NCBI GenBank assembly: GCA_030295235.1
Contig: AP026131.1
Location: 620,001-684,000, forward strand
Origin: Fistulifera solaris
Lineage: Eukaryota; Bacillariophyta; Bacillariophyceae; Naviculales; Stauroneidaceae
Length of the DNA stretch: 64,000 bases
Direction of reading: 5' to 3'
The stretch's first letter is position 1. Each line of letters begins with the position of its first letter. A program made the position numbers and the translations under genes. Below the pieces are notes generated by a model, which had not been told where the DNA came from, did no database searches, and worked only from the letters and a program-made list of their open reading frames with translations. This document shows, piece after piece, positions 9,346-56,694 of the stretch.

Positions 9346-9402
9346 CATGACTGAATTGCAGTCGTGGTGAAGGTCGCATACACTTTCGTCTATAGTAAAT
9401 AC
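9346..9402 (+). repeat. Dispersed ~58-bp hairpin element, copy 1
   Basis: Begins CATGACTGAATTGCAGTCGTG, an imperfect hairpin (CATGACTG / CAGTCGTG), followed 30 bp later by TCTATAGTAAATAC. It is part of the 220-bp tandem unit. The same two-part layout with near-constant length occurs at six other intergenic places in this window. Confidence 0.6.
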
Positions 9403-9563
9403 TAAGCACATCGATTTGTAAGGATTATCGACGTAAAGAATTGGGCGTGCATTGCAAAACGTTGCTGAAAGTGATGTCTTCATGACAACGCCAGTTACCA
9501 GCTTGTCAAATCTACTGGAAGAAGGAAGGTTAGGTAGCTGTGTAGTTCGGAAGAATATAGATT

Positions 9564-9621
9564 CATGACTGAATTGCAGTCGTGGTGAAAGGTCGCATAC
9601 ACTTTCGTCTATAGTAAATAC
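9564..9621 (+). repeat. Dispersed ~58-bp hairpin element, copy 2
   Basis: Near-identical to the copy at 9346 because it lies in the second tandem unit; one extra A in the spacer. Confidence 0.6.
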
Positions 9622-10044
9622 TAAGCACATCAATTTGTAAGGATTATCGACGTAAAGAATTGGGCGTGCATTGTAAATGCTGTCGATTTTCTGGTATGTA
9701 AATAAATCGTAACAACGAAAATGTGATGCTTTGAGCAGGTCTTTGCTTTTCACCTCGGCCAAAAAGTTATTTTGCACTTCTCGAATTATTGATTGTCATA
9801 CCGGTACCTGTACCTGGACCCTTTCATACGTCAGCAACGCCACGGGTCTTGAGTCTCGACGACTTTTCTTGCTTTCCGTTTTTCGCCTTTCGTCGTCATT
9901 CTCTTTCATACATCGACCTTCATTTCGGCACCTTTCTTTACTTATTTCGAAGAAGTTCTCGTTCCTGTGTTCGCAGCAAAGGAAACAAAAGAATCTAGAA
10001 TACGCTGTTACATCTCTCACCATAATTCGCTCGTTTTCGTTGAC

Positions 10045-10561
10045 ATGACGCTAAAATACATTGCCATTCTACTTTTTTGCCTTATCGGGCCGTGCTAATG
10101 CGTTCCGACCTCCTTTTCAAGGCCGTATGGATACGTCGCTACCCGCTGTGGACCGAAGGAAATTCCTCATTGGAACTGTAGCCACCATAGCAGCCAGCTT
10201 GACCTCTGAATCTGCAGAAGCAACCTACTCAGCGTTCAGTCGACGCGAACAAGATTGGCAAGAGCGAGCCGCGAACGGTGAAATTCAATATACATCGGCG
10301 AAACAGCTACGCCAGCAACTGCGCGAAATCGTCCCACAGAATAGCGAATCGTCAAGAATTTTCTGTCCCAACGGACCGTCGGCAAATGTTTCTCCGCTGA
10401 TGGAGAACAAATGCGGTGACCGGATGGCGGCCCCTTCGGTATATGGGCGGTCGAATGATGTTCTGGGGAACTCTATTCCTGGGTTTGGAGCTGGTAGAGG
10501 CGTGGAAGGTTCTGGTAGTTTGTCTTCTGAGGTCGGTGGCTTTCCTGCTTACAAGAAATAA
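10045..10561 (+). CDS. Small twin-arginine thylakoid-lumen protein of unknown function
   Basis: ATG at 10045 gives a signal peptide, MTLKYIAILLF. After removal of one T from the T6 run at 10073-10078 it continues ALSGRANAF|RPPF, a textbook diatom plastid cleavage motif. As written, the first frame stops after 17 codons while the other frame has no ATG, so the one-base break is almost certainly artefactual. A second signal, DRRKFLIGTVATIAAS ending SAEA, is a twin-arginine lumen signal. The mature protein is about 115 residues: a charged helical half (YSAFSRREQDWQERAANGE) and a Gly/Ser-rich tail with two Cys (FCPNG, NKCGD), ending FPAYKK. A photosystem-associated subunit is possible, but I cannot assign a family. 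Confidence 0.75.
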
Positions 10562-10733
10562 GTGTGCGGTAGGCAGACTTTGTCGATGTAGGCTACGTAT
10601 CGATTCCGAAATTGATTCATGACTACGCACAACTCTGTTGTCGAATCTATCTCGCTTGAAAGTTCTACCTTCCGCGACTGTCATTTTGTTACTAGCTTAA
10701 TTAACAGTCAATTACAGTCTTAAGGTTACTGGT

Positions 10734-12529
10734 CTAATCCGAAAACCAGATATTGCAGATGCTCACGTAGATGGAGTAGAGTATTGATGAGAAGGTAATG
10801 AAGAGGAAAATAGATCCTCCAACAACGGACTTTTGCGATTCCGTGCCAAGTGAAATCAAATCTTCCTTGTAGTGAGGAAGAAATCCAACGAACGCTATTG
10901 CACCGACTTGGAACGCTGTGGTGAGATAAGTAAGGTTTATCATGCCCTGCAGCCTGCCCTCCTGGAGCGCTTTCTTTGACACATCCCATATGCGCAATAA
11001 AACCGTACTTAAAGCAGATGAGAGTGTTAAAGCACTGTTGTTTACGGTGGTAAACATGGCGTACGACGCCCCCTCAGACCCCGACGGACAAAGATGAACC
11101 ATCATGATCGTGGTAGGGAGAAATTGGATGCCCGAAATGAACTCGGCGAATGCATCGTCCCCCAAAGCGAAAAAAGAAGTTCGAAATGCCAAACGTGATG
11201 CCTTTAATCAACAGGATTTGCAGCAGACTGAAGAAGCCATTCATCAACGTTGTTACAATATAGACATTTCTCCACGACCAGGTGATAAAGAAATATTTGT
11301 AACAAATGATCCCGAGATAGAGTAGCACAAGCGTCACAATCAGAATCATATTGAGCTGACACGTCGTGAAATGCAGCGTCGACACGAGAAACTCCCTCCA
11401 AGCAGCGTTCCCGACCTGCATCACGTTGTAGACGTACACAAAGGCCATTGGCTGCCACGCGGCTCGGCTGCAGACCGTATTCCAAATCTCCTGACATTGG
11501 TTGCGCGTGGATGGAGGCGGGGTCTCCGTATCTTCGTATAGCATGTAGACTAACGGTAGGATGCAAAGCGGCAGCAAGGACAGCAAAAGAATGACATAGT
11601 AGGGCCCCGCGTAGCTGTACAGAACCGTTGAAAGGGGAGCAGCCACCATCATACCAAAGAAGCGATAGGAATAGCAGGACGACTGAATAGATCCTCTCGA
11701 CGATTCAGGCTCTAGCTTGGCCTTTTCCGCAACAATGCTGTCGCCCATGACATCTTATATCGAAGCGATAAGTGAGATCGTAACAGCTTGTATTCGACAA
11801 CAAAGAATACATACCTGCTACCCAAAAGCCCATTCCGAAGCCGAACAAACAAATCGAAAAGAACCCAATGGACGGAGCATCCTCTGGAATTCTATCGCTA
11901 CCGTCCTCAATGAACTCTGAATCTGTCTTGAAGCATCCGGCACCACGAGACTCAATGCTTAAATTTGAGTTCACCATCAAAATAAAGAGCGAGAAACTAG
12001 CCAGTAGCCAACCAAAGAACATATACGGTTTGCGTCGGTAGCCCATGATAGGTAGATTGTCACTCATAAAGCCGAACAATAGCTTGAATGTTGCCGGCAG
12101 CGAACGAATCCCTGATATTGATGTTTGTTGCGCTGGAGTCGCTCCCAAGTCCAAGGGGAAGACATTGACGAGGGGAGAAGAGAGACCCTGCAAGAGTCCC
12201 ACTAACAAATAGCACATGGGCACAGCAATATTCTCGGGGCGGAGGAGTTGACAGCTGCGCGGCAAATGTGGAGGAAATAAAAAGTCTTCTAGTTGCTGCT
12301 TCCAGTCTTCTGTATGAAATTCATCTTCCAGGACATCTGATAGAGGCAACTTTGACGAAGGAGCGAAATGACCATCGCCGTCTGTGTTACTTGTCAGCGG
12401 CAGCATCTCCATTTGATTTCCATCCGGATCTCTGGATAACTTTTCGACGTTTATATCGCTGTAATCATCGCTGGATGAATCGTCATTATAATGTCGATGT
12501 CTTATAGAAGAACGCGCTGGAGGGTCCAT
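10734..12529 (-). CDS. Major-facilitator membrane transporter of the folate-biopterin (BT1) family
   Basis: Starts at ATG 12527-12529. The N-terminus (about 90 residues) is hydrophilic, Ser/Asp-rich and cytosolic. About 12 membrane segments follow. BT1-type signatures include GATPAQQTSISGIRSLPATFK with FGFMSDNLPIMGYRRKPYM (the loop after TM2-3), then DSIVAEKAKLEPE, then GIQFLPTTIMMVHLCP and GASYAMFTTVNN. The family carries folates, pterins and related compounds; the substrate here is unknown. One intron, 11754-11814 (GTATGT...ATAAG), joins WVA to DVMGDS. A frame break sits in the A6 run at 11170-11175: one base fewer gives SNFFFALGDDAFAEF. The tail ends 172 bp from the convergent lumen-protein gene. 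Confidence 0.85.
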
Positions 12530-13180
12530 GGTAACAAAGTCGCAAACAATGGGCTTCGAATTATTTTGCGAAAGAATAACGGAACTGTCATTGTCATCGC
12601 CATAACATCGCCAAGCAGTTTTCTGTTTTCTTTGTTGTGCGCGACTATATCAGAGTTAATGTTCAAGCACAAAAGGGAATCTGGAATGTTTCAAACCACG
12701 CATTTGCCGAAAAGAATGCAACGCCATGTCGTCACATTTGGCGTCATCCTCCCCGTCGGTCATCGGCATCGCCTATTAGCGACATTTGGCCAAATTTAGC
12801 CGTAGCCGTTGCGAAAAAGGATACTAACTCCCTTAGAAGGCAAAGTAAATGAACCTAATCAGGCGTAATAATGGATAGATAAAGATTAGTCGACTGGTTA
12901 TATGCTATGAAAGAAATATTTTCATAAGCTATTCCTGGCTCGACTAGGTGACGGCAGCAAGTTAGAATTGATGATGTGCATGCCGCTGCCTACTTCCTAG
13001 CCTGCAAACGTCAATCACAGCAGTTCCTTTTTTACGAATTCAAAACTCTAGCTAAGTCCTACAACAAGGAAGAAAGACTACATGATGTACGGCAATCAGC
13101 TCAGAGGCTTCCCTAGTTATACATGCTGCGGCTAGGTTGAATATGAATAATCAGTAGAGCATCACGGGGTAGCACGGAGT
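12530..13180. other. Intergenic region
   Basis: 650 bases between the start of the transporter gene and the end of the Cys-rich gene. I see no repeat, RNA gene or credible ORF. Confidence 0.4.
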
Positions 13181-13903
13181 CTATTGCGTGCCCTTTACGC
13201 GTCGCTTGCGTCCAAGACCACCACGACGATTGTTCTCGGTGTACATCTTGTTCGTGTCTTTCACTACTTTGGGCATCGTTTTCTTAGGAGGGGTTCCTCC
13301 AGTCGAGGGATTCGAACCACCGAAGTTGTTATCTGGAGCACCTCCTCCCGTGTTTCCCCCCGAATTGCCGCTGCTGCTACCTTTTCCGCATCCACAAGGA
13401 TCGTTGAAGTAGTTTTGGATCGGCCGGCACATGCGATCCTCAAAGTTCCCGTTGCGTGCCCACCAGTATAGTTCTTTGCAGGTATTGACATTCGGGAAGT
13501 TGAGAACTGCAACAAGCGTTTTATCGAGCGAAGGATAAGATCCATCCCGACAAAGGTCGCATTTGGAGTAGGATCCTCGTGGATAATTGGTTGCCGGGGA
13601 AGGCACAGGCGACTGAGCGATCGCGGTGGGTTTGTGTGATGGGTTGCAACAATGATCGTACCAGCGTCCTTGAAGCTGGCGGCAAGCAGCATTTCCCTGC
13701 TTGATGCTATTCGTCGGATCTGCCATGTCAATGATCAGCTTTTGACAAGTGTATCCCTTGTTGTCTACGGCGAGGTTCGCGCGCCCAGACAGAGCGGGTC
13801 CGCAGGAGTCACATAAGCAGCAGAGTCCGATCGTCTCATCCGCGGCCGAAAATGCCGCATGCGACACGATCAATGTTGTTAATAGGCCTAAGGAGGTTTT
13901 CAT
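13181..13903 (-). CDS. Secreted cysteine-rich protein with duplicated Cys module
   Basis: Starts at ATG 13901-13903 (MKTSLGLLTTLIVSHAAFS, a clear signal peptide); an ATG 21 bases upstream is in frame but would lengthen the n-region. 240 residues, no intron. Two modules share the spacing CxLC ... TC ... C ... C(C/GC). The first runs from CCLCDSC through YTCQKL and ACRQLQ to HCCNP. The second runs from KCDLCRDG through NTCKELYWW and MCRPIQ to PCGCG. A Gly/Asn/Ser-rich linker and a very basic tail (RRGGLGRKRRVKG) follow. It is probably extracellular or cell-wall associated, with disulphides. Function unknown; the charge of the tail could bind silica or acidic polysaccharide, but that is speculation. 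Confidence 0.75.
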   Translation of the reverse strand: MKTSLGLLTTLIVSHAAFSAADETIGLCCLCDSCGPALSGRANLAVDNKGYTCQKLIIDMADPTNSIKQGNAACRQLQGRWYDHCCNPSHKPTAIAQSPVPSPATNYPRGSYSKCDLCRDGSYPSLDKTLVAVLNFPNVNTCKELYWWARNGNFEDRMCRPIQNYFNDPCGCGKGSSSGNSGGNTGGGAPDNNFGGSNPSTGGTPPKKTMPKVVKDTNKMYTENNRRGGLGRKRRVKGTQ

Positions 13904-14518
13904 TTTAGTTGAGATTGCAATCAATAGAAGAAGCGATGGTATTAATGATAAAGGTCACAAATGGTTCCAGAAGAATGGTAAAATAAATTGAACTGTGAGA
14001 GCACTCCGGACGGTTTCGAAATTGATCGGATGAATCCGCCTCCGCGCGGGCCGGCCGTCACCTCAAAGCCCTTGGGTAAGTACAGAAACTCAGATAGTTC
14101 AGCACGATCAGCGCATGCGGCTGCAGCAGAAAATTCGTCGAGCAAAAGCGGAGAGGTACACTTTTCAGCCAAGTAATTTTGATTGGCTTTCCGGCGTTTT
14201 GCCGCCATATTGTAATGTACTATTTAGGGCCTGTTTCTCAAAAGGATTTCTTGTAAGTAAGGCAAGCCACCGTTGGTTGCAATGACATAGAAACTTCCTT
14301 GGAACATGAGTATTCGTTGAAATGTACAACAGAAATTTCTCTTTACAAACCGGTTCTTGGCTTCTAAATATTTGAAAAGCCAAATTTTTCGATTAGTGAT
14401 ACATAGGAGGCATTGGCATTTGGCATGTGCATCCTTTATCCTGTCTTCTCCTCCCTCCATTCAAAACGCCACTCCGCTCCGTAAGTTTCTCCCGTCATTT
14501 CGGTACGGTAGGTTAGAA
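13904..14518. other. Intergenic region upstream of a tandem repeat
   Basis: Overlapping 60-88 codon ORFs on both strands but none with a recognisable feature. Nothing else seen. Confidence 0.35.
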
Positions 14519-15207
14519 GTTCGAAGACACTGGTCCAGAATTTCTGGAACACCACTGAAATTCTGTATGATCAGAAATAATAAGGACTAACATTTCCAGA
14601 ATTTCTGGAAAGTGGATTTTCAATCGTTACGATCCAAAACAAAGTTTCCAGCTTACGTTATGATCCAAAATACGTCCAGAAGTTTTGGAACGTGCACAGC
14701 ATTTGGGTAGGATCGAAGACACTGGTCCAGAATTTCTGGACCACCACTGAAATTCTGTATGATCAGAAATAAATAGTCCAGAATTTCTGGAACCTCCACT
14801 TTCTATCGGTATGATCCAAAACACAATTTTTACAATCACTGGAACGCGCGCTTGCTTTGGCTATGATCCTTGACACCGTCTCCAGAAGCTCTGGAACGTG
14901 CACAGCATTTGGGTAGGATCGAAGACACTGGTCCAGAATTTCTGGACCACCACAGAAATTCTGTATGATCAGAAATAACTAGTCCAGAATTTCTTGAACC
15001 TCCACTTTCTTTCGGTATGATCCAAAACACAATTCTTAGAGTTTCTGCAACGCGCGCTTGCTTTTGCTATGATCCTTGACACCGTCTCCAGAAGCTCTGG
15101 AACGTGCACAGCATTTGGGTAGGATCGAAGACACTGTTCCAGAATTTCTGGACCACCACAGAAATTCTGTATGATCAGAAATAACTAGTCCAGAATTTTT
15201 GGAACGT
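14519..15207. repeat. ~206-bp tandem repeat rich in CCAGAATTTCTGG palindromes
   Basis: The phrase GATCGAAGACACTG(G/T)TCC starts copies at about 14711, 14918 and 15123, with a diverged copy at 14519; period about 205-207 bp. Each unit has two or three palindromes of the form CCAGAA-N-TTCTGG (14535-14547, 14594-14610, about 14726, 14778, 14933 and others) plus variants such as CCAGAAGCTCTGG. Between them lie GATCAGAAATAA and TATGATCCAAAACAC. It is non-coding and ends about 230 bp before the polyprenyl synthase start codon. Confidence 0.88.
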
Positions 15208-15437
15208 GCAACATGCAACATGAACATGCCACATCATCAACTGCTAACCGCAGATAATTTTATTACCGCTACGAGTTCGTCGGAAGGCGAATGAACATCG
15301 GCATGATGAAGAAGAAAAAACTCCATGAACCACGTAGCCGATCGCAGAAAAGTTGTTGCTTTATAAAAGGATAGGAATAGCTTTGAACAAATAATCATTG
15401 AACAAAGAGCAACGTAGCCAGGCATACCGTCGTTGAA

Positions 15438-16787: not shown

Positions 16788-16956
16788 TTTAATACTATGA
16801 CAATACAGACTACTACAATGTAAGTAGGAACCCCTAGCGAGTGACATTGGTTCGAGAATTATGTTACCCGGTTGTGGTTGTGCAACGACAGTCCAGCATT
16901 ACTCGATTCAACTTCCATCAAACGCATCTATCTTGGCTATCATTTCGAAGAGACCA

Positions 16957-22257: not shown

Positions 22258-22394
22258 GTAACTCCTTTGAGATTATCAGTAATTATTAAATAATTAACTA
22301 TACTTTATCAAAAGAATTGCCATCAATGCACAATAAAGTTGAATATGATGTTCTATCGACGAAATAATATCGATCTGTTATCGTACAGTACCGC

Positions 22395-22470
22395 ATATCC
22401 GGAACACCCCTCTGTCGATAAATTTCCCTACCAGAGCTACGTGGAATTACGTAGCCATTCGAAGCTTTGT
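22395..22470 (+). repeat. Solitary fragment of the 435-bp repeat found at 56.7-57.7 kb
   Basis: ATATCCGGAACACCCCTCTG followed by TCGATAAATTTCCCTAC and GAGCTACGTGGAATTACGTAG matches the start of the tandem unit at 56.7 kb, with scattered substitutions over about 76 bp. It shows the sequence is a dispersed family and not only a local array. Confidence 0.75.
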
Positions 22471-22603
22471 ATTTTCATTATTTTCGCGTATTGCAATAAT
22501 TTGGACATTTGTTGTCTTTTGTTGGTCCTAAACGTTTAGCTGTCTCTATTAAAAGGCAAACTTGGATTGCAATTTTATAATGATAGTTAGTGCTCAAACT
22601 ATA

Positions 22604-22662
22604 CGTGACTGCGATTAAGCTAAGTCACGATCTGCGTAAACCAACACTATACGCTATAGTAA
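22604..22662 (+). repeat. Dispersed ~58-bp hairpin element, copy 3
   Basis: CGTGACTGCGATTAAGCTAA with AGTCACG forms the hairpin, followed by AACCAACACTATACGCTATAGT. Same length and order as the other copies, with a longer loop. Confidence 0.55.
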
Positions 22663-23173
22663 GCATTGACTGCTAATTCCAAATTCAAAACATAAAATTA
22701 TAATCTCCATAAGAATTCTACAACATAGTCCCATACATCATCGATTGTCTCTCTAGCTAGCCGTCGCTTGATCGTTGATCGTTATTTCCATGAACTGAAA
22801 GCTGTACATCAAGATGCCTAACTATGCATTTTTGCGGTTTCGCCGGATACACAATACGTAATACTACAGCTTGCTTCTCGTCGCAGCGTGTATCATGACG
22901 TCATAAGTCATGAAAGGTCATTGACGGTTCCAGATACACTTTGTCAGATACTGAAGCAGAGCCGTTGAGTGCCTCGGTTTTGCGCGTTTTTGCTCGTTGC
23001 GGTTTGCGTTCTCTCCGTTTTTTTGTTGATGAGGCTCTTGCGTCGTGCACGAACCAGCGGACCGTTTGTGTTTGATTCTTCTCCATTTCATTTCCATTCC
23101 GTTTGTTTGACTCGTGAAAAACTACATCTTATTCTTTTCTAAATTTAATTTTATAGTAAACATAAGTGGAATC

Positions 23174-23993: not shown

Positions 23994-24055
23994 TAAATAC
24001 GTATTCGAAACATAAGTAATGTTTTCTATTTATGTTATGTCAAATATTTTTAAAT

Positions 24056-26470: not shown

Positions 26471-26659
26471 GTCGATGCTTCGTCTGGTTTGCTAGAAACA
26501 ATTACGCTGTGTGTTATGATTACTTGTAGTTTCTTAGAGAACGTTTGTCACCCTCATTCTAATCTCGTTTTGTTTTTCTTTTATTGCTTTGAAGTTCATG
26601 TTTTGGTTTGTTTGCGTGGACGAAAAAGGAGCGAGCTCAGAACCTATTGGTGTGCAGAA

Positions 26660-27225
26660 GAGATTTATCCAGAAAATCTGGCTGATAAATGGTTTCAAAT
26701 AGCCAGAAAATCTGGGTGATTGGGAGTTCACGTCTCCAGAAAATTTGGGAGTGTGGTGTTTCACATACCCAGAAAATCCTGGAAAGTGGTGGTTGCACGT
26801 TCCCAAAAATGCTGCGTGACTGTGCTTGGAGTTATTATTCAGTTGTCATTATTGCTCTGCAATAGACTACCTTTGTCAATCGCGATTCATGATGTCGAAA
26901 AGGCTTGAAAATGAAATTAGTTACTCCGTATCATTGACCTATATTTATACTATAGGCTGAAGTGAAACCACCACGTACCACGACTGCATTTCAGTCATGA
27001 ATTAATATTTCATTATTTCTTGTGGCCCGACTGGTAGTCTACCCAACCTCGCTCGCTTTCTAAACTTTTGAAATATTCCTCGATTGTCGATACGTTGCAA
27101 TGTAGCATTTAACTTTATTGTTTGTGATGCAATTGACGATTCAAGTCTAGTCCATAGTTTTAGTTTCTCGTCCCCAGAAAATTTGGGCAAGTGGTCTTTT
27201 CATGTCCCTAGAAAACTTGAGCGTT
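26660..27225. repeat. Array of CCAGAAAATCTGG-like imperfect palindromes
   Basis: In the region upstream of UTP14, the motif CCAGAAAATCTGG and variants recur at about 26668, 26703, 26733, 26769, 27173 and 27208, each followed by a short G-rich run such as GGTGATTGGGAGTT or GGGAGTGTGG. Spacing in the first group is about 30-35 bp. The family resemblance to the arrays at 14.5 and 35.2 kb is in the palindrome; here the centre is AAAA rather than ATT. A dispersed hairpin element sits between the two groups. Otherwise I see nothing in this 800-bp interval. Confidence 0.65.
26946..26999 (-). repeat. Dispersed ~58-bp hairpin element, copy 4
   Basis: On the minus strand: CATGACTGAAATGCAGTCGTG, spacer, then AGCCTATAGTATAAATA. 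The hairpin half differs from the 9.3-kb copies by one base (T to A in the loop). Confidence 0.65.
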
Positions 27226-27265
27226 GTGTGCACTGTAACCATGAGTAAATGCTGTAACTATAACT

Positions 27266-29728: not shown

Positions 29729-30733
29729 CTTGGGGAATTGCAGGAGTAGCACGGAACTGGATCAGAATGCAAGAGAGTTGTAAACAAGTACTCCGTAGTT
29801 GACAAACAATTAGCTTTACTTATTGTTGTCCTTTTTTTGATCCGATGGGCGAAAGGTGGAGAACAAAGCGAAGAATAATTATTACGGAATCCTTCCCATC
29901 AAAAAGTTTTAAAAGATTGCGGTCCACTTGTATTACCGATCCTATTTAGTCTTATTTGTTAGCAATCATAGAGTGAAAGGAGCGGAAATTATTGTGGATC
30001 ACGACTGGTATCTTCGTTTCATTCGCGGAAAGGGCCGCGGGTCGTTGACATCTTTTTTTCCATGACGCGTCCGCGTCTTTGTGGTCTGTCGTACTGTACG
30101 CTGCGGTGAGCCAACATTCGTGCCGTTTCGTTCCTGCTCCTCTTTCTCTGTGAAGATGAAAAAAGTTGTTTAGTCATTCTATGCAAATGATATTACTTTC
30201 ACGTAATCCGGTGTTGAAAGCAAGGTTGCAAGGAGACTAGGCTTGTTACGGGACTGAAAACCAGTTGAGTGAGTCGTAGAACCAACACATTGCGCTATAG
30301 TCAAAAATCCAGCCCTTTCTTTTGAAGCTTTGGCTGCAGCTTCGTCCTAAAACTTTGGTAAAATAATCCTTACCAATACACTATGGATAAAAGAAAGTCA
30401 ATTACTAGCATTCATGGGTCGACAATGGTGTTGTTGCTGTTTTTCTGCAATGAAAGGAATTCGGTGGTATTTCCGGGACTGAAGTTGTGTTGGGTCGTAG
30501 AAAAAAGTAATCTACTCTTTGTGTCAGTGTGAAGAATGGCCGCGTTTGTGCGCGCATCGCGCGCGAGAGAAGTGAAAGACCGCCGCCGTTTTTGACCAAC
30601 GCGCAAACATGACGCCGAGCGACCATGGTGCGAAGAGCCGCTGAACTCCTCGAATGATCGTTACTATTTTGTTTAATCCAAAATTAAACAATCCACCCTT
30701 GTAAATAATAAACGATACATTACGGATTTCGAT
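29729..30733. other. Divergent intergenic region
   Basis: 1 kb between the divergent trifunctional-enzyme and primase genes, holding one degenerate dispersed hairpin element (30249-30306). A short GCGCGC-rich patch lies at 30540-30575. No credible ORF or RNA gene seen. Confidence 0.4.
30249..30306 (+). repeat. Dispersed ~58-bp hairpin element, copy 5 (diverged)
   Basis: CGGGACTGAAAACCAGTTGAG has a decayed hairpin, but the second half TAGAACCAACACATTGCGCTATAGT is close to the 39.1-kb copy (TAGAACCAACACATTGG...), and the length is the same. Confidence 0.5.
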
Positions 30734-33874: not shown

Positions 33875-35215
33875 TCGTGCCGTAGCCCTCAGTGTCGAGG
33901 CGGTTTTTGTCTAGCTGTAACATAAACACGCTTTCTCTAGTAGAGACTTCTGGTGACAACGTCTAATGCAATGGGAAAGGGTACTTCACAAAACTTGGTG
34001 GGCACGTAGAAACTCAGTACATATCTCTGTAAGTAGGTTTGTGTAGAATATGTACCGCCGTCATTTTTTTCTTGCCGTTGACTAGTTCTGGCTCGAAGTT
34101 TCACAATGCTTTCAGCATGATGCTTAACATCTTCATGTTACAATATACAAAGCTAGCAAACTCTTTCGTAGCAATGAATCGCAGCTTTTTCATCAATTCT
34201 GAATGTAGAGAGGTGGTGCTAGCGGTCACTTCTATTCCGAGGGACACGTCGATCGAAACGAGAAATGGCGGCCGTCAAAGCCGAACCAACGATGATTAAT
34301 GATGGAGCTGGAGAGGACATGGGAATATTGGCATCAGTGTTATAATACGTGAATTCAAATGATATTCTTGACAATCCACTGCCGGTATGATGGCCATTGT
34401 GTCGATGGTGTTGATGGAAATGGCGTCTTTACAATGCCTTTTCAACGACGAATCCGTCGAGTGTCGCGAGTGTTTACGAAGTTCATCGTTGACGATCCGT
34501 TTCGTATACCTCAACGTTGGCTAAGGATACTACAGTGGTGTTCTGAATGAGGTCTGAGAGTTCAAGTCGCTCCAGAGTGATAAGACAGAGTGCAGTGGCT
34601 GTTACCTGTTACCTTTCCAGCAATGTCGTGAAAATTCATGCAATCCACAGTGCAGACACAGGGCTTCTTTCAACCCGCAACTCATGCAATCAGTAATCTA
34701 CACAAAGCAACTAGGCGTTACGGGGTGCTCAATAACATGCTGTTTCAACTGGGTCATTCTTGGATGTAGCGGCATTTTCAATGAGCGGGAACCAAGGGCA
34801 GCAGTAGAAACAATTTGCAAGTATTTTGACAATGAATTATTTACATGCCCTCTAAGCAAACGAACAAACAATTCACGCCGGGGGAACTCTTTCAAAGCGG
34901 TTGCGAGTGGCAGGTTTGGCAATGAGCTTGCCTAGATTCTACGTACTACAATTGACTAGCTTAAATACTTGGCCTTGGGAAGAACGCTGTGATGCTGGGA
35001 GACATTTTGAGGTCATTGAGAGGCTCCAAACAAGTAGCTAAACTAGTTTCCTGTTAAGTCAAATTGAAATCTATTCTTTATGTAATCATAGCTGCGCTTC
35101 TAAAAATCCATGTGCTCCTTAGTGATTCAATATGTTGGCCCGTATTATTTCTACGTGGTGTACGTACGCGGTACTCGATTTTGCGTATGTAGAATTTGTA
35201 CGAGCCCACCAAATT
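33875..35215. other. Long intergenic region
   Basis: About 1.3 kb after the primase gene. Several 60-110 codon ORFs (e.g. 34039-34299, 34684-34935) have no signal, motif or repeat support, and I do not call them. No tRNA seen. Confidence 0.4.
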
Positions 35216-35925
35216 CCTGAAGTACCCTTTCCCATACCATACAGAAATCCTGTGTATATTCCAGAAATTCTGGAACAAGTCGGTGTTTTGCAACTTGCGA
35301 CTGCACATTCCAGAATTCCTGTAATCGTTTTTATAGGTCACGAACTTCTTGCACGTTCCAGAAATTCTGGAATCGGTGTTTCGTAGCTACAGAAATGCAG
35401 CGCAGGTTGAAGTACTTTTGGAAGAAATCGCTGTTCTTGCTTATGGAGTAAATCATAACGCAATTCCATGCAGTGTGTACGATCAGAAATTCTGGAGTCG
35501 GTGGTTTTTACCAGGTACAGGGATAATGTGCACGGTCCAGGAATTCTGGAATAGGTGTTTATGATCCTGCAGAAATTCTGTACATATCTGAAATCTGAAT
35601 CGGTGTTTCGAGTCAAACAGCGATTTTTGTGCAAGTTCCAGAAATTCTGGAATTGGTTTGTGGTCATACAGAAAATCTGCTATCGTTCCAGAAAATCTGG
35701 AATGAATCGGTGTTTGTGGTCCTAGAAATCCTATGTACGTTCCCGAACTCCGAATTCGGTGTTGCTGATGGCCATATAAGAGTATTTATTCACATTCAAG
35801 AGAACTCTTCATTCCGTGTTTCTGGTCAAACAGCGATTTTGTGCAAATTCCAGAAATTCTGGTGAATTGTTTCAATCACAAAGAATAAGTTTGATTTATT
35901 TCCAGAAATTCTGGATACTATGTAT
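35216..35925. repeat. Array of TTCCAGAAATTCTGGAA palindromes
   Basis: The 17-bp perfect palindrome TTCCAGAAATTCTGGAA or a one- to three-base variant occurs at about 35260, 35310, 35360, 35485, 35533, 35572, 35636, 35685, 35850 and 35900. Most are followed by TCGGTGTTT and separated by 45-90 bp containing TACAGAAAT. The units are too uneven for a simple tandem repeat. Short ORFs on both strands are by-products of the repeated palindrome. It ends about 290 bp before the LON-domain gene. Confidence 0.85.
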
Positions 35926-36211
35926 TAGGTCCAAAAAATGAAAGGTTACGGCACGCGTGACTGAATTTTGTCACGTCACCCTGCGGGGGCCGGCATTCTT
36001 TTCGGCTGGTGTGATGATTTTGCGCTGAGCGCTGACACAGAACTCGTTATTGAGCTCATTGTATTGCACTGTCGACGTCTTGATGGCCAATCAACGACCT
36101 GCAAAGCAATAAAATAGCTAATTCTCACTCACCGAAGCTTAATCGAGAGACCTTGCTGAATTCTGTTGTTAGGAAGGTGCAACGTAAAGAGAAATTCTAT
36201 AGCCAACGAGA

Positions 36212-37636: not shown

Positions 37637-37670
37637 AATAAGGCATTATAAATTATTTAGTTGAATTCAT

Positions 37671-38896: not shown

Positions 38897-39481
38897 TTTT
38901 TTTTTGATTTTATCATCCTAATGTTGAATGATCGCAAAAGTAATGATCAACAACAAAATGCGCTGTGAAGTGTGTTTCTTTTTTTTGCTACGTAGCATTT
39001 TGTACTGGATGCAGAATTTTAACATCCTCGACAGTACCGTACCGGTACAGTTCCAGTATCGTGCTACAGTATTATTTGGGGCTCTTCTTGTCGCCGTTCT
39101 CATTCGTTGGATCGTGACTGAAAAGGCAGTCGTGGTCTCCTAGAACCAACACATTGGCCCCTATCGTGACTCTCGATAAAACAATCGATCGGTTTTGCAT
39201 TCCTTGCCAGCGCGATTGTCGCTCTTATCCCTTCAGAATGTGTTGGTCTTTATCAAGATGCCAAAATAATCTTGTTATTTGCTTTATAATATCTGACATC
39301 GAAACTTTTGTTCGGATTATCCACCTCATAATTACTATCATCCGAGGTGTTTTATTCCTAAGTTAGCTAAATTTATTTCACTATTCAGTGCGCAGCACAA
39401 TTGCGATAGACATTGAAAGGCCTGAACATAACTCAATCTAGAACAAATGTATGCGTTTTTATTTATACAAGCATGTCTATT
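38897..39481. other. Intergenic region with one dispersed element
   Basis: 585 bases. A 71-codon plus-strand ORF (38928-39143) has a hydrophobic C-terminus but overlaps the dispersed element and is not called. Contains the palindrome-like TACCGTACCGGTAC. Confidence 0.35.
39113..39170 (+). repeat. Dispersed ~58-bp hairpin element, copy 6
   Basis: CGTGACTGAAAAGGCAGTCG gives the hairpin; the second half is TAGAACCAACACATTGG followed by CCCCTATCGTGAC. Very similar to copy 5 in the second half and to copies 1-4 in the first half, so it links the two. Confidence 0.6.
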
Positions 39482-41287
39482 TCAGTGCCTGCCTTTAGCT
39501 AGTGCGGCCCAATCAATTTCGTCGTCGTCTATACCGTTCACTTTCCTATCGCCCGACGGTTCCATTGAAATGTGACTTGCGCTGTATGGTTCGAGTCGTT
39601 TTGCTACGGCCGTTGGTACCATTGCGCGACAATAGGTCCCCGTCTCTCGGTAATCTACTACCTCTACATTTCCTTGTTCGTGAACTATATTCAGTTCATC
39701 TCCTTTCGAGTACGGGAGCAGGATCTCGATGGGGACGAGCAACTGCGACATGGCATCTTCCACCACGGCGACAAAGTCTTGTAAACCTTCGCCAGTTTTG
39801 GCTGACACGGCAACCGTATTTTCACTCGTTGCAGCATCATATTTCAGATATTCGGCGTCATCGGGTTCGAGCAGATCCATTTTGTTCAACACACGAACAA
39901 TTGGTTTATCGTCGACGTTCATTTCTTTCAACACGGATAGAACAGCCAATTCTTGTTTCTCCCATGACGGGTTAGAGACGTCAATGACATGAATGAGTAC
40001 ATCAGCTTCTTTGACTTCTTCTAATGTCGCTCGGAAGGCCGCAACCAGATGTGTCGGAAGCTTCTGAATGAACCCGACGGTGTCTGTAAGTAACACTTCT
40101 GGATGTGTTTTGTATCCTGGCAATTTTACTTTTCGGGTAGTCGGATCCAAAGTGGCAAATAAGATGGATTCTGCCATGACACCCGCGCGCGTCAGATAAT
40201 TCAATAAGGAGCTTTTACCGGCGTTGGTGTACCCGACCAGAGAAAGAAACGGAAGGCCGGTTCGTTTCCTGGACAATCGGTGCATCGTTCGATGCTTCTG
40301 CACATCATCGATTTTGTGTTTGAGAGTAATGATGCGGTCCCGCACCAATCGCTTGTCAATCTCCAATTGACTTTCACCCGGTCCCCTCAATCCAACTCCA
40401 CCGGCTCCGGACTGTCGTTCCAAGTGCGTCCACATTTTCGTCAATCGAGGCTTTCGATACTCGTGCAGAGCGAGCTCTACTTGCAATTTTCCTTCTTTCG
40501 TCTTGGCGTGTTGAGCGAAAATGTCCAAGATCAGGGCGGTTCGATCAATGACTTTGATTTCTCCACCGGCCACTAAAAAATCATCCTGCAGTATTTTCTT
40601 ATTGAACGAATTCTCCAAATGCTTCTGTTGTCGCGGAGTGAGTTCCGCATCGAACACAATGGTCGAACAATCACCCGCTCCTTTCATCAATTCGTTGGCT
40701 TCTTCCACTTTTCCCGTCCCAATGTACGTGCGGGGATTGATTTCATTGAGCCGTTGCGTGACTTCTCCCGCAATTTCCATGCCGGCCGTTTTGATCAATT
40801 CGCGCATTTCGGTCATGCTCTCTTCTAACGAAAAATACGGTTGTTCGTCGTTACTTTGAGAACGTCGCGCCGCCGAGAGTTCCTCCACGCCCACTAAGAT
40901 GCAGCGCTCAACCTTTCGTTTGACACCAAACTCGTCAATGTAAAGACGGTCTTCGCGTTCTTCTAATATATCAGCTTCGTCGCGGATGGTATCGATGAAA
41001 TCTGGTGAACTATTAAAGTCGAATGTGTTATCGTCTAGATCATAAAATCCCATTCCAGATGCCGCTGTTTCCAGTGACCATTCTTCATCATCTACCGGAG
41101 ACGGTATTTGAGTCGAGGGTGATGTTGAAACGAACAGTGCATTCGTTCGACGCGTGTTTGACAAAGAAAAAGCTTGCACGTTTGCAGTGCAAAACACAAG
41201 TGCACTCCACACGGCAATCCAAGTCATTCGTTGCGTTCGATGCGAAGATTTTCGAGATTTTGTTCGTTCCTTTATAAGGTATTCCAT
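39482..41287 (-). CDS. hflX: HflX-type ribosome-associated GTPase, plastid
   Basis: HflX binds the large ribosomal subunit and splits stalled ribosomes. The ATG at 41285-41287 is the first in the frame (an ATG at 41227 also works; the frame beyond begins with a non-ATG codon). A hydrophobic core and [12 protein letters not shown] form a plastid signal, so it probably acts on plastid ribosomes. The N-terminal HflX domain includes [13 protein letters not shown] and [10 protein letters not shown]; the linker has [20 protein letters not shown]. The GTPase domain is complete: G1 [11 protein letters not shown]2 [10 protein letters not shown]3 [11 protein letters not shown]4 NKMDL, G5 SAKTGEG. About 601 residues, no frame break. 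A C-terminal [14 protein letters not shown] domain is also typical. Confidence 0.93.
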
Positions 41288-41637
41288 TCTGATGTTTCGA
41301 AGGTTGCTTCCGCAACGCTTTTGCTGTAATTTTGTACACGACCTTGCGTCTTGATACTCCTTGAATGATCCGCCGTCACAATAATCCTTTGTTCTTTGTT
41401 GATTTGTAAAAGAAAAAAACACGTGGCCATGGGCGATTTGATCTTGACGTCTTTCGGATGAATCAGAAGGCGCAGTCTTTTTTCTCGTCCACTGGTTCGT
41501 GCGAAATGTCCGAACGCCAGTGAGTCCAGTATCCCACGTTCAGTGGCCGAAAATTTCCTATACTGCGGAATGGTGGTTTTTCGAATGGTTCTTAAGTCCT
41601 CACTCCAACGGACGGATTTCTTTTCCGTTGATGTCAT
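41272..41637 (-). CDS. Possible small protein upstream of hflX (doubtful)
   Basis: 121 codons from an ATG. The first half ([20 protein letters not shown]) resembles the short VRW/VRF-x-RTI motif that opens many uncharacterised diatom proteins, which is why it is listed. The second half reads like random sequence and overlaps the first ATG of hflX by 16 bases. It could equally be leader sequence of hflX. Low confidence. Confidence 0.2.
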
Positions 41638-41818
41638 TGTGGAAGCGCGGAAAGCTCGCCGGACGCGTTCCCCCTACACCAATACGAACACTTCTGGTGG
41701 AACGCCTGCATCATCGTTTCCCCCAAAGGGCACGCGATTTCTCGTGCAGGGAGTGGCATTTGAACGTGTGTGATGAATTTGCATTATTTTATTTTATGGC
41801 AACAATAACAGGATCATC

Positions 41819-42856
41819 ATGAACAACGCAAACTCTAGAAAACAATTGGATTCATTGTACGAACCATCCGTACAAATGACCAAGCTCTGTTCGACCGATG
41901 GCTCATGGTCGGATGAGAATGACGAACACGACCCGTTAGAATCGGAATCATCATCATCGAGCGCTCTCGAACGAACGATTCCTTGGATGGGAGCGCTCGT
42001 TTGGCCGCTCATGTCCACCGTTCCTCTTTTATTATCGTCGGAATATTCTCCAATTTCCTATCAAGACATCTTTCCGGTGTCATGGTACGAACCGAGCGGC
42101 GGAAGACCCAAACCGCTGGGGCTGATATTGGGGCTATTGGCGGTCGCTGTGGGTCAATTCTGGGTGTGTTTCTTCTTTTACCTTTTCAAATATGGTTATT
42201 TATCAGCCCGAAAGGAGCCGCTTTCGATTCAAACGAAAGGGGCACGTGTTTACGATTTCATGGAAGGGCTGCTCACACATCTCGCACAAGTCGAAGGCTT
42301 TGTGCTGTTAATGTCGTACCTCACAATCACTTGGATGACGGGAATCATGCCCAAGGCGTACTACACATTCGATGGGACAATTCAATACAAAGAGCTATTC
42401 TTATGTCTGCTGATTCAAGATGGATTACAGTACACGGTTCATCTGCTTGAACACATTGTGTCCCCGTCTTTTTATCAAATTTCCCACAAACCGCATCACC
42501 GCTTCATCAATCCGCGCCTGTTCGATGCATTCAATGGCAGCTTCCTGGATACCATTTGCATGGTAGTCATTCCTCTCTTTCTCACTTCGCAAATTGTGCG
42601 AAACTGCAACGTCTGGACGTACATGTCCTTTGGATCCAGTTATTCGTGTTGGCTCACGTTGATTCATTCCGAATACGCCTTTTGTTGGGACGGTATGTTC
42701 CGTGCACTCGGTTTGGGGACACCCGCCGATCATCACGTGCATCACAAGTTTTTTAAGTTCAATTACGGACACTTGTTCATGTGGTTTGATCGATTGGCGG
42801 GGACGTACCGCAATCCGCGCAGCTTTGCGCCGCGCGTCTTCAATCACAAGGTCTAG
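41819..42856 (+). CDS. Membrane-bound di-iron enzyme of the fatty acid hydroxylase/sterol desaturase superfamily
   Basis: 345 residues, single exon. An acidic Ser-rich cytosolic N-terminus (about 55 residues) and four to five hydrophobic segments. His clusters: HLLEH at about residue 206, HKPHHRF at about 223, HHVHHKFFKFNYGH at about 304. These bind the di-iron centre of ER enzymes such as C-4 methyl sterol oxidase and C-5 sterol desaturase. The first box is HxxxH (HLLEH), not the HRxxHH of ERG25/ERG3, and the spacing resembles the alternative squalene epoxidase known from diatoms. That assignment is inference; a sterol desaturase or fatty acyl hydroxylase is the fallback. It diverges from hflX. 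Confidence 0.85.
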   Translation: MNNANSRKQLDSLYEPSVQMTKLCSTDGSWSDENDEHDPLESESSSSSALERTIPWMGALVWPLMSTVPLLLSSEYSPISYQDIFPVSWYEPSGGRPKPLGLILGLLAVAVGQFWVCFFFYLFKYGYLSARKEPLSIQTKGARVYDFMEGLLTHLAQVEGFVLLMSYLTITWMTGIMPKAYYTFDGTIQYKELFLCLLIQDGLQYTVHLLEHIVSPSFYQISHKPHHRFINPRLFDAFNGSFLDTICMVVIPLFLTSQIVRNCNVWTYMSFGSSYSCWLTLIHSEYAFCWDGMFRALGLGTPADHHVHHKFFKFNYGHLFMWFDRLAGTYRNPRSFAPRVFNHKV

Positions 42857-43333
42857 AGGCGGCGAAGGAATGAATAGATGTATTGTGTTTTCTTGTGGTC
42901 AATGCTAATGGGTGCCAAACTGTTGGCATAGTAATAAAGTGTGTGTTTCTTCTTCTGATTATTCCGTATACATGAGATGCTCTTATCAAGTCTAGATTCT
43001 TTCCAGCAAAGTCTAGAGATCCAGCAAAGGATTTGTGTTAGTTGTACGTCGAACATGGTGCTGTGGAGTGATATTTCATGTTGAAATGTAACGGCAAACG
43101 CGGTCCATAGCTGCCGGGACTGGGGAAATAGTTGAGTCAGTAGGGTGATGATGATGATTCATTATTCTTTCGTCACTTCGCATTATCGGATTTTGCTTGC
43201 TACAAAGTACTTGTTTACGTTTCTATTGATAAACAATAGGCTTTATCTTCCATACTGCAACCGATAAAAGCTCTTGTTTTGGTTTTCCAGCGTCGAAAAG
43301 CTGTGCATCAATTAAAGGGAAGTCTTTCCAAAA
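42857..43333. other. Intergenic region
   Basis: 477 bases between two plus-strand genes. Nothing recognisable apart from an AT-rich stretch (43190-43260) near the next start. Confidence 0.35.
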
Positions 43334-44263
43334 ATGCTTCACAGTATCCCTCGTGTAGGCATGATGGGGATGGCCTGGCTCCTGGTAGCATTTGTCGGAT
43401 GGACGAACGGCTTCATGACTCCTCCGACAACTAACGCTCGCAGTGATCTGACATTGAATTTATCCAGCGGCGCGGAAGATGTCTCGAGACGACAACTGTT
43501 CGTTTCTGCTGTCGTTACGGCAACCGCACTGTCCGGAGGTCGCGTCGAAGCGACCCCCACGTCGAAAGTGCTAGTACTGGGCGGCACGGGATTCATCGGA
43601 TCTCGTGTCGTGCAGCAACTCCAGAAGGCCGGAATATCGGTCGTGGCCACCAGTCGGGATGGTCGGGACGGAACGGTGGCCTTGGATATTCTCACCACGG
43701 ACAATGTGGTCGATCGCGTCAAGGAATTGGCGAGCGGATGTCAAGCGGTGATTTCTTGTTGGGGAGCCATCGGAACCGCGAATGACAATGTCATTAATTC
43801 CGCCAGTGGATGGGCCGCCCAAGGAGCCAAGGCGGCGGGAGTGAACCGGTTTGTTTCGTTTGGGATCGCTCCCGAAGTAGTGCAAGCAACGTCGGGCATT
43901 GAATTCATTCAACCTTATATTCAAGGCAAGGAATTTGCCAAACAGTCGGTACAATCGCTCTTTGGGGATTCTGGTGTGATCATTGAACCAACTTTCGTGC
44001 ACGGTGGTGATTCGTTTGGCGTGAATCCACCGAGAGTGGCCGGTTTCTATGGCGAGTTCATTGAAGGCCTTTTATCTTCATCGCCCGTGCGAGCCATCGA
44101 AGGTGCTCTTCCGCGCGGGAATATCATTCAAGTGGCTCTCGAACCACCGATTTCGGTCGATACTGTGGCAAGTGCTGCCGTTGTTGTCGCTCTGGGGAAA
44201 ATTGGTTCGTCGGTCAGTTTAGATACGTACGACAAGATCAAGGAAGTGGCAAGGCTATTGTAA
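43334..44263 (+). CDS. Lumen-targeted NAD(P)-binding Rossmann protein (atypical SDR/NmrA-like)
   Basis: 309 residues, no intron. Signal peptide, then WTNGF|MTPP (plastid), then SRRQLFVSAVVTATALSGGRVEA, which has the twin-Arg, hydrophobic stretch and A-x-A-like end of a thylakoid-lumen Tat signal. The mature domain opens with KVLVLGGTGFIGSRVVQQL, the glycine-rich dinucleotide loop of an atypical short-chain dehydrogenase, and contains SCWGAIGT, GVNRFVSFGIAPEV and PTFVHGGDSFG. There is no canonical Tyr-x3-Lys catalytic pair; YIQGKEFAK is the nearest match and could serve. Related proteins bind NAD(P) or act as assembly factors for quinone/photosystem complexes. Confidence 0.85.
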   Translation: MLHSIPRVGMMGMAWLLVAFVGWTNGFMTPPTTNARSDLTLNLSSGAEDVSRRQLFVSAVVTATALSGGRVEATPTSKVLVLGGTGFIGSRVVQQLQKAGISVVATSRDGRDGTVALDILTTDNVVDRVKELASGCQAVISCWGAIGTANDNVINSASGWAAQGAKAAGVNRFVSFGIAPEVVQATSGIEFIQPYIQGKEFAKQSVQSLFGDSGVIIEPTFVHGGDSFGVNPPRVAGFYGEFIEGLLSSSPVRAIEGALPRGNIIQVALEPPISVDTVASAAVVVALGKIGSSVSLDTYDKIKEVARLL

Positions 44264-44412
44264 AATCGTCAAGCAGCCGCTTTTGTGTTGTGTGAAGACT
44301 GTAAATAAGTCTTTCTTCATTAGCTAGAAGCCCTACTCTTCAAATACGTATTGCTATTAAACCTTATCAAATACTATGTAATGGGTCGAATGAAACACAA
44401 AAGTCGCTGCAC

Positions 44413-45520
44413 CTAAACCTCTGCCACATATTCCCTGGGCTTCGTTTTCTTAGAACGAGTCGATTTGGCATCCGTCTGGAGAGCGTCTTCGTCATCTTTT
44501 GCTTCTTCTTCCGACTCTTTGCCTTCGCCATTCTGTTCCACAACTCCTTCTTCCTCAACCTTCGGCACAGCTGCCGCAACAGCCGACTCTGCTACGTCCG
44601 CCAGGATATCGGAGTCAATGCTGGAACGAACTTGCCAAACAAACCCAACATTGTTCAATTTCTCAAGACGATCTTCAGTCAAAAGGAATGCTTTCCCTGT
44701 TTAAGAAGCTTGAACTGTTCTCTCTGTTTCGCCACCCATTTTCCCAACGCCTTGTTTTCCTTGTAATGCTGAGGGACCTTGCAATCTCCGTTCTTCTCCT
44801 TGTACTCCAAGAGTTCGTTGTAGCGTTGATCCCATTCCGGTCGGTTGCGGACCTGCCAGATAAAGCCCAAACTTTCCAGTTTGAGTTTGCGCTCCTTGTT
44901 GAGTTGCGAAGGTTGACCTTGCTTCATGGCCTTGTATTGACGTCGCTGATCGGTGACCCAATCGCCCAATCCGGGAATTTCACACAAGCGGGGGACCAAA
45001 ATGTGGCCGTGTGCCTTCTTGTAATCGTCCAGAAGCGTGAAGAAGCGATTCCAGTGCTCATCGCCGCGAGACGTGAGAGGAACGTGCAAATGCTGCAACA
45101 CCTTGATCTGATCTTCCGTCAAAGTAGAAGGTGTCGGGGTTCGTCGCTTGCGTCCGCTTCGTCCTCGTCGCCATCTTCTTTCACTGCGGCATGGTTCTTG
45201 TATTCACGCTTCACGTGCTGCAGCCAAGCGTGCAACTCCGGGTACTCTTCCTTGGGGACATGATAATTTCCTTTTTCGGCTTTGAAGAGCAAGAGCTGGA
45301 ATAAGTAGTTATTGAAGGCACCTGGTTCGGTCGAAAGGATCTTCAGTCCTCGAGTGGGTGCCTTGCGTGCCTTCTTGGCGGGCGGTAGCTTGACATCATC
45401 GTCTCCCGCAGCCACTTCATCGTCCGCGGCTTCAGTTTCGTTCGCTTTCACTTCATCGGGCTTGATCGTTTCCGCAACGTCGGCGGCTTCTTTGGTGCGT
45501 TTTCCTCGACTGGCCGGCAT
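44413..45520 (-). CDS. Helicase-associated (HA) domain protein
   Basis: HA domains are about 65-residue helical modules with conserved Trp, found in tandem in many stramenopile proteins and at the end of some helicases; they probably bind DNA. From ATG 45518-45520 comes a charged tail (acidic stretch with PPAKKARKAPTRG, a nuclear signal). Three HA-like repeats follow: FNNYLFQLLLFKAEKGNYHVP; WNRFFTLLDDYKKAHGHILVP with LGDWVTDQRRQYK; and WDQRYNELLEYKEKNGDCKVP with LGKWVAKQREQFK, each followed by LxxLGFIWQVR-type ends. The C-terminus is acidic then basic (STRSKKTKPREY). The frame breaks twice: one base is missing at CC 45154-45155 and one at A4 44681-44684. No helicase motor is present here. Confidence 0.8.
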
Positions 45521-45911
45521 GGTGATGGTTTAACCCTTGAATGACGCAAAAGTTATAAGAAGGGATACACTACGGTAGAGGTTTGATTGTTGCCGTTTTG
45601 TCCCTTAACCCAACGGAGGATAGCGAAGGAGTGGTCGTAAAAACTCGCCAGCGAAAGGATTTCGCTGAGAGATGCAGCGTGCAGCGTTTTCGTCCACGTG
45701 CTTCTGTTTTCGTGTCAGAAAATGGAATGAGTGAGGAGCGAAGAGTAGGCGAAGATTGAAACGGCATACAGATCTACTATTTGATCAACTGTATAGTCTC
45801 AACGGACCCAATAATAGAAATTACATAGAAGTGGGTGACCGAATTGTATTCCAGTGTATAACAAAATGTACATTTTCAAAAATAATCATCAACAAACGTT
45901 CTGTCATTGCT

Positions 45912-45970
45912 CATGACTAAAAATCCAGTCATGCGAAAGTTGTAATACACTTGGGGCGATAGTAAATACT
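45912..45970 (+). repeat. Dispersed ~58-bp hairpin element, copy 7
   Basis: CATGACTAAAAATCCAGTCATG is a perfect 7-bp hairpin; after the spacer comes CACTTGGGGCGATAGTAAATAC. A weaker relative begins at 46142 (CGTGACTGAATCACAATCG). Confidence 0.6.
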
Positions 45971-56675: not shown

Positions 56676-56694
56676 AAAAGGCGTGTACACGAAA

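What the first reader, a model, noticed from the sequence alone, without database searches (positions are those of the whole stretch)
9346..45970. A dispersed ~58-bp element with a hairpin plus a CTATAGT box, seven copies in intergenic DNA
Copies at 9346, 9564, 22604, 26946 (minus), 30249, 39113 and 45912 share an order: CRTGACTG-loop-CAGTCRTG hairpin, 20-30 bp spacer often with AACCAACAC, then CTATAGTAAATAC or variant. Lengths stay at 54-59 bp although sequence identity in the spacer is low. All copies lie between genes, none in a coding region. Constant length with a conserved front and back suggests a functional unit (small RNA, protein-binding site, mini-transposon or insulator) rather than random decay.
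Basis: seen in the sequence. Interest (0 to 1): 0.72.

Follow-up and report, generated by a model that had tools for sequence, protein, structure and literature searches.

The report
Dispersed satellite-like repeat with paired-site core
In what looks like a hybrid diatom genome, a short DNA motif recurs many hundreds of times between genes as the best-kept part of a repeat about 220 bases long, and it looks more like a landing site for a paired protein than like a small RNA.

Summary
In detail: a profile built without the window copies finds all seven (E 1e-18 to 3e-5). Genome-wide the two-part pattern has 473 matches against 1 for the reversed control. None of 33 clusters examined overlaps predicted coding DNA.

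(1) The 58-bp element is the best-conserved core of a ~220-bp unit in short head-to-tail arrays (66 of 79 neighbouring cores lie 170-249 bp apart). (2) Its stem shows no excess of compensatory changes (5 double changes, 3.8 by shuffling), so a small RNA is unlikely; a constant dyad with half-sites one helical turn apart suits a dimeric DNA-binding protein. (3) The repeats have dispersed: one subfamily is on even-numbered contigs at 11 of 11 loci, another on odd at 8 of 8, so they probably spread separately in two parental genomes. A second family without detectable similarity has the same plan.

Best reading: a dispersed satellite-like family with a protein-binding-like core. Host function is unproven, and the organism (probably Fistulifera solaris) is inferred.

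The parts
9283..9677 (+). two-unit head-to-tail array (period 218 bp) holding the cores at 9346-9402 and 9564-9621
   Evidence: self-similarity 91%; core E 1e-18 and 3e-18 with the held-out profile; the homoeologous region has one copy
22604..22666 (+). core, variant stem with longer loop
   Evidence: E 3e-5; an alignable island, 22590-22675 at 75% identity, inside an otherwise unaligned homoeologous intergenic stretch
26942..26999 (-). core
   Evidence: E 3e-13; no copy found at the homoeologous place
30249..30306 (+). core; a decayed second copy follows at about 30476 (read by eye)
   Evidence: E 2e-6; the homoeologous gap is 145 bp against 560 bp and holds no copy
35956..35975 (+). hairpin half only, weak
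   Evidence: homoeologous hairpin in alignment; E about 0.7, not significant by itself
39113..39170 (+). core with degraded box (CTATCGT)
   Evidence: E 2e-9; the homoeolog has minus-strand copies nearby, so the correspondence is unclear
45912..45969 (+). core (box CGATAGT)
   Evidence: E 4e-8; homoeologous copy aligned
46138..46177 (+). partial second core of the same pair, 230 bp on; hairpin without box
   Evidence: E 0.001; homoeologous copy aligned, also without box

Best explanation
A dispersed, satellite-like repeat family with a unit of about 220 bp. Shown: units sit in intergenic DNA as single copies or short head-to-tail arrays, differ in array length and presence between the two subgenomes, and some subfamilies have spread over several chromosomes of one subgenome only. 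Shown: the 58-bp core (dyad CRTGACTG-N5-CAGTCGTGG, then CTATAGTAAATAC 26-28 bp after the dyad arm) is the best-conserved part across loci. Inferred: the core is a DNA recognition site for a dimeric protein, not an RNA, because dyad spacing is constant with half-site centres 10 bp (one helical turn) apart and the arms do not co-vary. Inferred: the unit spreads as circular or linear tandem DNA without fixed ends, and arrays grow and shrink by recombination between cores. Inferred and weakest: the protein bound at cores about one nucleosome plus linker apart keeps the arms conserved in place, through chromatin or gene regulation.
For: 473 two-part matches against 1 in the control and 129 against 0 with a stricter pattern. 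N5 loop in 84 of 101 non-redundant copies. Arm-to-box gap 26-28 bp in 67 of 78. Nearest-neighbour spacing 170-249 bp in 66 of 79. 5 double stem changes against 3.8 in shuffles, p 0.33; 0 compensated changes among 30 copies with a changed GACTG or CAGTC arm. Homoeologous pairs not chosen for being intact on both sides (8 pairs): arms 0.84 identical against 0.67 in flanks, p 0.008. Dispersal: 85-91% identity over up to 354 bp between arrays on C2, C12, C22 and C4, 96% over 269 bp between C6 and C4. Subgenome-private subfamilies: 11 of 11 loci on even contigs, 8 of 8 on odd. Ends differ among the 11 recent loci. A second family without detectable similarity has the same plan.
Against: The box is no better conserved in place than the flanks in the 8 pairs not chosen for intactness (0.70 against 0.67, p 0.42), so selection on the box is not shown. 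All these pairs needed a partner copy to exist, which favours conservation. Copies are missing in the other subgenome at 2 of 6 window loci (26946, 30249) and at 2 of the 11 C1 loci compared (L007, L017), which argues against an essential site. No protein, chromatin or expression data. Position relative to genes shows no preference beyond what intergenic length predicts.
Confidence: 0.5

Rival explanations
1. A classical non-autonomous transposon (MITE, TRIM-like element, Helitron/Helentron derivative or SINE) of which the core is a terminal or internal motif.
For: Subfamilies have dispersed. In 15 of 33 arrays self-similarity starts 0-17 bp before GACTG, as if the core were a terminal direct repeat. 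In 3 of 11 recent loci (L047, L060, L103) the array shares a left leader; in two of them it is bounded by a 10-bp inverted repeat, read by eye. Helentron-borne tandem repeats are known from the oyster (PMC7492417, abstract read).
Against: Left and right ends differ among the 11 recent loci and no target-site duplication was recognised. No tyrosine recombinase of PF00589 in the genome. No Helitron_like_N match either, but that control was silent, so this is no evidence of absence. By eye no TG...CA ends and no tRNA-type boxes (from recalled consensus, not tested by a program).
Confidence: 0.25
2. A host cis-regulatory or insulator element kept by selection near genes, which happens to be repeated.
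For: Arms are more conserved than flanks between subgenomes; 0 of 33 clusters in coding DNA. The box string TATAGTA fits the promoter motif TABASTA reported as the most abundant in F. solaris (PMC5935921, passages; that it fits is my own reading). Euchromatic satellite copies modulate genes in Tribolium (PMC4537270, abstract start in a listing).
Against: Frequent gain and loss between subgenomes; box not conserved above flanks in place; no orientation or distance preference shown.
Confidence: 0.18
3. A small structured RNA gene family read from the hairpin.
For: The stem can form: 9346 folds better than 194 of 200 shuffles; loop length constant.
Against: No excess of compensatory changes; no Rfam match at gathering score in the window or at E up to 2 in six array loci; the other five copies folded range from z -1.8 to +0.2; only the core, not the rest of the unit, recurs across loci.
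Confidence: 0.06
4. Chance resemblance or random decay.
For: Single copies such as 22604 are degraded.
Against: 473 against 1 and 1,367 against 3 matches; held-out E-values.
Confidence: 0.01

Closest known systems
TCAST satellite-like elements dispersed in Tribolium castaneum euchromatin (PMC3411249, abstract and outline read)
   Same: short arrays of tandem monomers, up to tetramers in TCAST, scattered near genes, with a suggested regulatory role
   Different: TCAST is also the major pericentromeric satellite (35% of the genome, per the abstract); here no large array was seen and each unit has a conserved dyad core; no sequence relation was tested
Cg_HINE Helentron elements carrying satellite-like central repeats in Crassostrea gigas (PMC7492417, abstract and outline read)
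   Same: short satellite-like arrays dispersed genome-wide with differing flanks
   Different: there the arrays lie between defined transposon flanks; here no common flanks across the family were found and no Helitron protein was detected (silent control)
CENP-B box satellites (recalled)
   Same: a protein-binding box kept constant inside a fast-changing repeat unit
   Different: core is about 58 bp with a dyad and a second box, dispersed rather than centromeric; the CENP-B box sequence was not compared by a program
TABASTA promoter motif of Fistulifera solaris (PMC5935921, passages read)
   Same: TATAGTA in the box fits the motif
   Different: a 7-bp degenerate motif found by DREME in 500-bp promoters; the paper passages seen do not mention the dyad, the repeat or the tandem arrays

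Membership tests
Structured non-coding RNA family | compensatory base changes in the stem | tested here: not met
   5 double changes in 84 sequences against 3.8 in 2,000 shuffles, p 0.33
Structured non-coding RNA family | match to a known RNA family | tested here: not met
   none in the window at gathering score, none in six loci at E up to 2
Dispersed satellite-like DNA | head-to-tail monomers of constant period in short dispersed arrays | tested here: met
   66 of 79 neighbour spacings 170-249 bp; arrays on many contigs
Dispersed satellite-like DNA | higher similarity within than between arrays | tested here: met
   units within arrays up to 99.6% alike; between-locus alignments over 150 bp have median identity 74%
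Dispersed satellite-like DNA | long heterochromatic parent array | not tested
   the genome could not be scanned for long arrays with these tools
MITE or other cut-and-paste element | fixed ends with terminal inverted repeats and target-site duplications | tested here: not met
   ends differ among 11 recent loci; no duplication recognised in the homoeologous gaps viewed
TRIM (miniature LTR element) | LTRs with TG...CA ends, primer-binding site, 4-6 bp duplication | tested here: inconclusive
   cores bound many arrays like short direct repeats, but TG/CA ends and primer-binding site were judged only by eye
Tyrosine-recombinase element (Crypton or DIRS type) | phage-integrase-type recombinase in the genome | tested here: not met
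   PF00589: 0 matches at E up to 0.001; control found it in 14 of 14 genomes
Helitron or Helentron derivative | Helitron protein in the genome | tested here: inconclusive
   PF14214: 0 matches, but 0 of 14 control genomes rang
Dimeric transcription-factor or architectural-protein site | dyad with constant half-site spacing | tested here: met
   N5 in 84 of 101
Dimeric transcription-factor or architectural-protein site | protein binds it in vivo | not testable with these tools
   no binding or chromatin data

The most novel reading that the evidence does not exclude
The genome carries several unrelated families of dyad boxes, each repeated at one-nucleosome phase (about 213-222 bp) in short intergenic arrays, and each expanded mainly in one of the two parental genomes. 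Together they would be a chromatin-organising system in which a dimeric protein bound in successive linkers phases nucleosomes or insulates genes, with parent-specific box families meeting in the hybrid nucleus.
Probability: 0.15. Interest if true: 0.8.

Novelty: new variant of a known kind. Interest (0 to 1): 0.52.

Why it matters
Little is known about non-coding repeats of diatoms. If the organism is the allodiploid diatom it appears to be, this family marks the two parental genomes and shows that repeats spread in each parent before they met, which gives a molecular tag for subgenome assignment and for dating. A conserved dyad core at nucleosome-scale spacing, seen in two families without detectable similarity, is a concrete and testable lead on what holds intergenic chromatin in order in these algae.

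Tried and rejected
Small RNA: rejected on lack of compensatory change and no Rfam match. Promoter preference: elements never lay between convergent genes (0 of 12 C1 clusters with both neighbours known; 0 of 6 window and 0 of 3 homoeolog clusters), but convergent gaps are only 6-8% of intergenic DNA, so this means nothing. Tyrosine-recombinase site (loxP-like or integron-like reading of the dyad): no PF00589 protein in the genome. Helitron: no match but silent control. Presence in IMG/VR viral contigs: 0 matches to one strict pattern. First hexamer-based gene predictor was overfitted and was replaced (then 36). Homoeologous partners of 6 C1 loci (222k array, 621k, 672k, 850k, 1018k, 1086k) were not obtained, and for L010 the homoeologous flank did not align, so these are outside the counts. 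One of the 15 pairs given to (22604) dropped out because its hairpin was not parsed. Literature: eight searches listed no title or abstract start that describes this family; most subscription papers and all supplements were out of reach.
Full report
WHERE IT IS. The window is G000:C9:620001-684000 of a 51.7-Mb, 61-contig genome. The genome has 87 matches to the chlorophyll a/b-binding family, many in pairs on neighbouring contigs such as C1/C2, C3/C4 and C13/C14, and the Prp8 gene of the window has a 96% identical partner on C10. Window and C10 region align at about 85-91% over the long blocks. Size, pairing and G+C (46%) fit the allodiploid diatom Fistulifera solaris, described with 42 homoeologous pairs and about 45% G+C (PMC5935921, passages). 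The name is an inference; no identity search against that genome was possible.

THE OBSERVATION. Genome-wide, GACTG-N3-8-CAGTC-N20-34-CTATAGT has 245 + 228 matches against 1 + 0 for the reversed pattern; a stricter form has 129 against 0; the hairpin alone has 1,367 against 3, of which a few are one site counted on both strands because the stem is nearly palindromic. CTATAGTAAATAC alone, with up to one mismatch, has 380 against 76. These are matches to fixed patterns, so the number of decayed copies is unknown.

ANATOMY. Across 84 loci aligned from anchors, conservation runs from about TTGATT before the first arm to the end of CTATAGTAAATAC and then falls away. A fuller alignment shows weaker common sequence through a unit of about 220 bp. 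Among 158 distinct cores, 66 of 79 neighbour distances are 170-249 bp, and most others fall at 410-460. Units inside an array are up to 99.6% alike, while alignments over 150 bp between loci have a median identity of 74%. In 15 of 33 arrays the internal similarity starts 0-17 bp before GACTG, that is at the left edge of the core. In 5 of 38 runs two cores lie 181-246 bp apart with no detectable similarity between their surroundings, as if the spacer had decayed and the cores had not.

STEM OR DYAD. The loop is 5 bases in 84 of 101 non-redundant copies. Thirty copies have a changed GACTG or CAGTC arm and none has the matching change opposite. Over eight pairs in 84 sequences there are 5 double changes against a shuffle mean of 3.8, p 0.33. 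The commonest outer pair is T-G, not a Watson-Crick pair. Six of the seven window copies were folded as RNA: z-scores -2.2, -1.8, -1.8, -0.5, -0.5 and +0.2. Rfam gives nothing. This is what separate half-sites of a DNA dyad look like; with N5 the half-site centres are 10 bp, one helical turn, apart.

BETWEEN THE SUBGENOMES. In 14 homoeologous pairs the core is 71% identical, gaps counted, against 57% in flanks on either side, and higher than the flanks in 11 of 14 (p 0.003). Some of these pairs were picked because both sides matched the strict pattern. In the 8 pairs not picked that way the arms are 84% identical against 67% in flanks (higher in 7 of 8, p 0.008), but the box is 70%, no better than flanks (p 0.42). 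Every pair needed a partner copy to exist. Copies come and go: the 9346/9564 array is one copy on C10; 26946 and 30249 have no partner; 39113 has an unclear one. On C1, of 11 loci compared with C2, 5 match the strict pattern on both sides (recognised), 2 are degraded (L026, L028) and 1 keeps only the box half (L014), while L007 and L017 lack the array altogether; L010 could not be placed.

DISPERSAL. Arrays on C2, C4, C12 and C22 are 85-91% alike over 245-354 bp, and copies on C6 and C4 are 96% alike over 269 bp. A box pattern typical of this subfamily has 27 matches: 25 with at most one mismatch, at 11 loci, all on even contigs C2-C26, and two with two mismatches, on C37 and C42. A pattern of another subfamily has 16 exact matches at 8 loci, all on odd contigs C1-C21; its 18 one-mismatch matches are 13 on odd and 2 on even contigs among C1-C26, and 3 on C30-C34, where the pairing by number no longer holds. 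In the pairs checked up to C16 the odd contig is the longer member, so parity most likely marks the parent. The simplest reading is that each subfamily spread in one parent after the two lineages parted and has not crossed since. The ends of the 11 recent loci differ, which speaks against a transposon with fixed ends.

PLACE. None of 33 clusters overlaps predicted coding DNA, which makes up 50% of the sequence examined. Most of these loci were chosen because they hold an element. No preference for promoters can be claimed: where both neighbours are known (12 of 24 clusters) none lies between convergent genes, but such gaps are 6-8% of intergenic DNA.

A SECOND FAMILY. A different repeat (window 56690-57670 and 22437) has a dyad CTACGTG-N4-CACGTAG. 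Its pattern has 166 matches against 0 in the control. Of 45 neighbour distances under 1 kb among the 100 listed, 37 are 421-433 bp and 4 are 216-219. The 436-bp unit in the window is itself two diverged halves with cores 213-223 bp apart, and blastn finds no similarity to the first family. Of the 87 listed matches on C1-C27, 86 are on odd contigs. Two families without detectable similarity but with the same plan and nearly the same period suggest a constraint of chromatin size, although satellite monomers of nucleosome length are common in other organisms (recalled). In Phaeodactylum a 180-nt period of small RNAs is reported (PMC4247016, passages), which is not this period.

MECHANISM. Shown: a repeat of about 220 bp, dispersed within each subgenome, in arrays of changing length, with a core better kept than the rest. 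Inferred: a dimeric protein reads the dyad; arrays change by recombination between cores; spread is by tandem or circular DNA without fixed ends. Speculative: cores in successive linkers order chromatin or regulate nearby genes. The TATAGTA of the box fits the published TABASTA promoter motif (PMC5935921, passages), which is a lead and no more.

STATUS. Eight literature searches listed nothing that describes this family in title or abstract start. Closest in kind are dispersed satellite-like arrays of Tribolium (PMC3411249) and oyster (PMC7492417), abstracts and outlines read. I file it as a new variant of that kind.

Noticed in passing
window 56690-57670 and 22410-22500: A second dispersed family with a CTACGTG dyad, period about 436 bp made of two diverged ~215-bp halves; 166 pattern matches genome-wide, 86 of the 87 listed on C1-C27 being on odd contigs; the 22437 copy has an alignable homoeologous copy.
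   Followed up: partly
window 14659-15205, 35170-35920, 26650-26790: Clusters of CCAGAAATTCTGG-like palindromes, at 14659 in a 52-bp and 206-bp tandem period; similar palindromes sit beside repeat copies in L101 and L104. They recall heat-shock elements with an unusual spacing (recalled, not tested).
   Followed up: no
L047 and L060, about 160 bp left of the first core: A shared leader bounded by a perfect 10-bp inverted repeat (CAATTGGAAC / GTTCCAATTG), perhaps a small transposon next to the array; a related leader is at L103.
   Followed up: no
L066 and L051, downstream of the last core: The homology between these two loci on C22 and C4 runs several hundred bases beyond the array (to the end of L051), so some dispersal carried flanking DNA.
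   Followed up: no
L002, L007, L010, L020, L033, just after the box: A recurrent downstream motif, roughly TTTTGAANCAGACGGAAATTCTG, follows the core in several otherwise unrelated loci.
   Followed up: no
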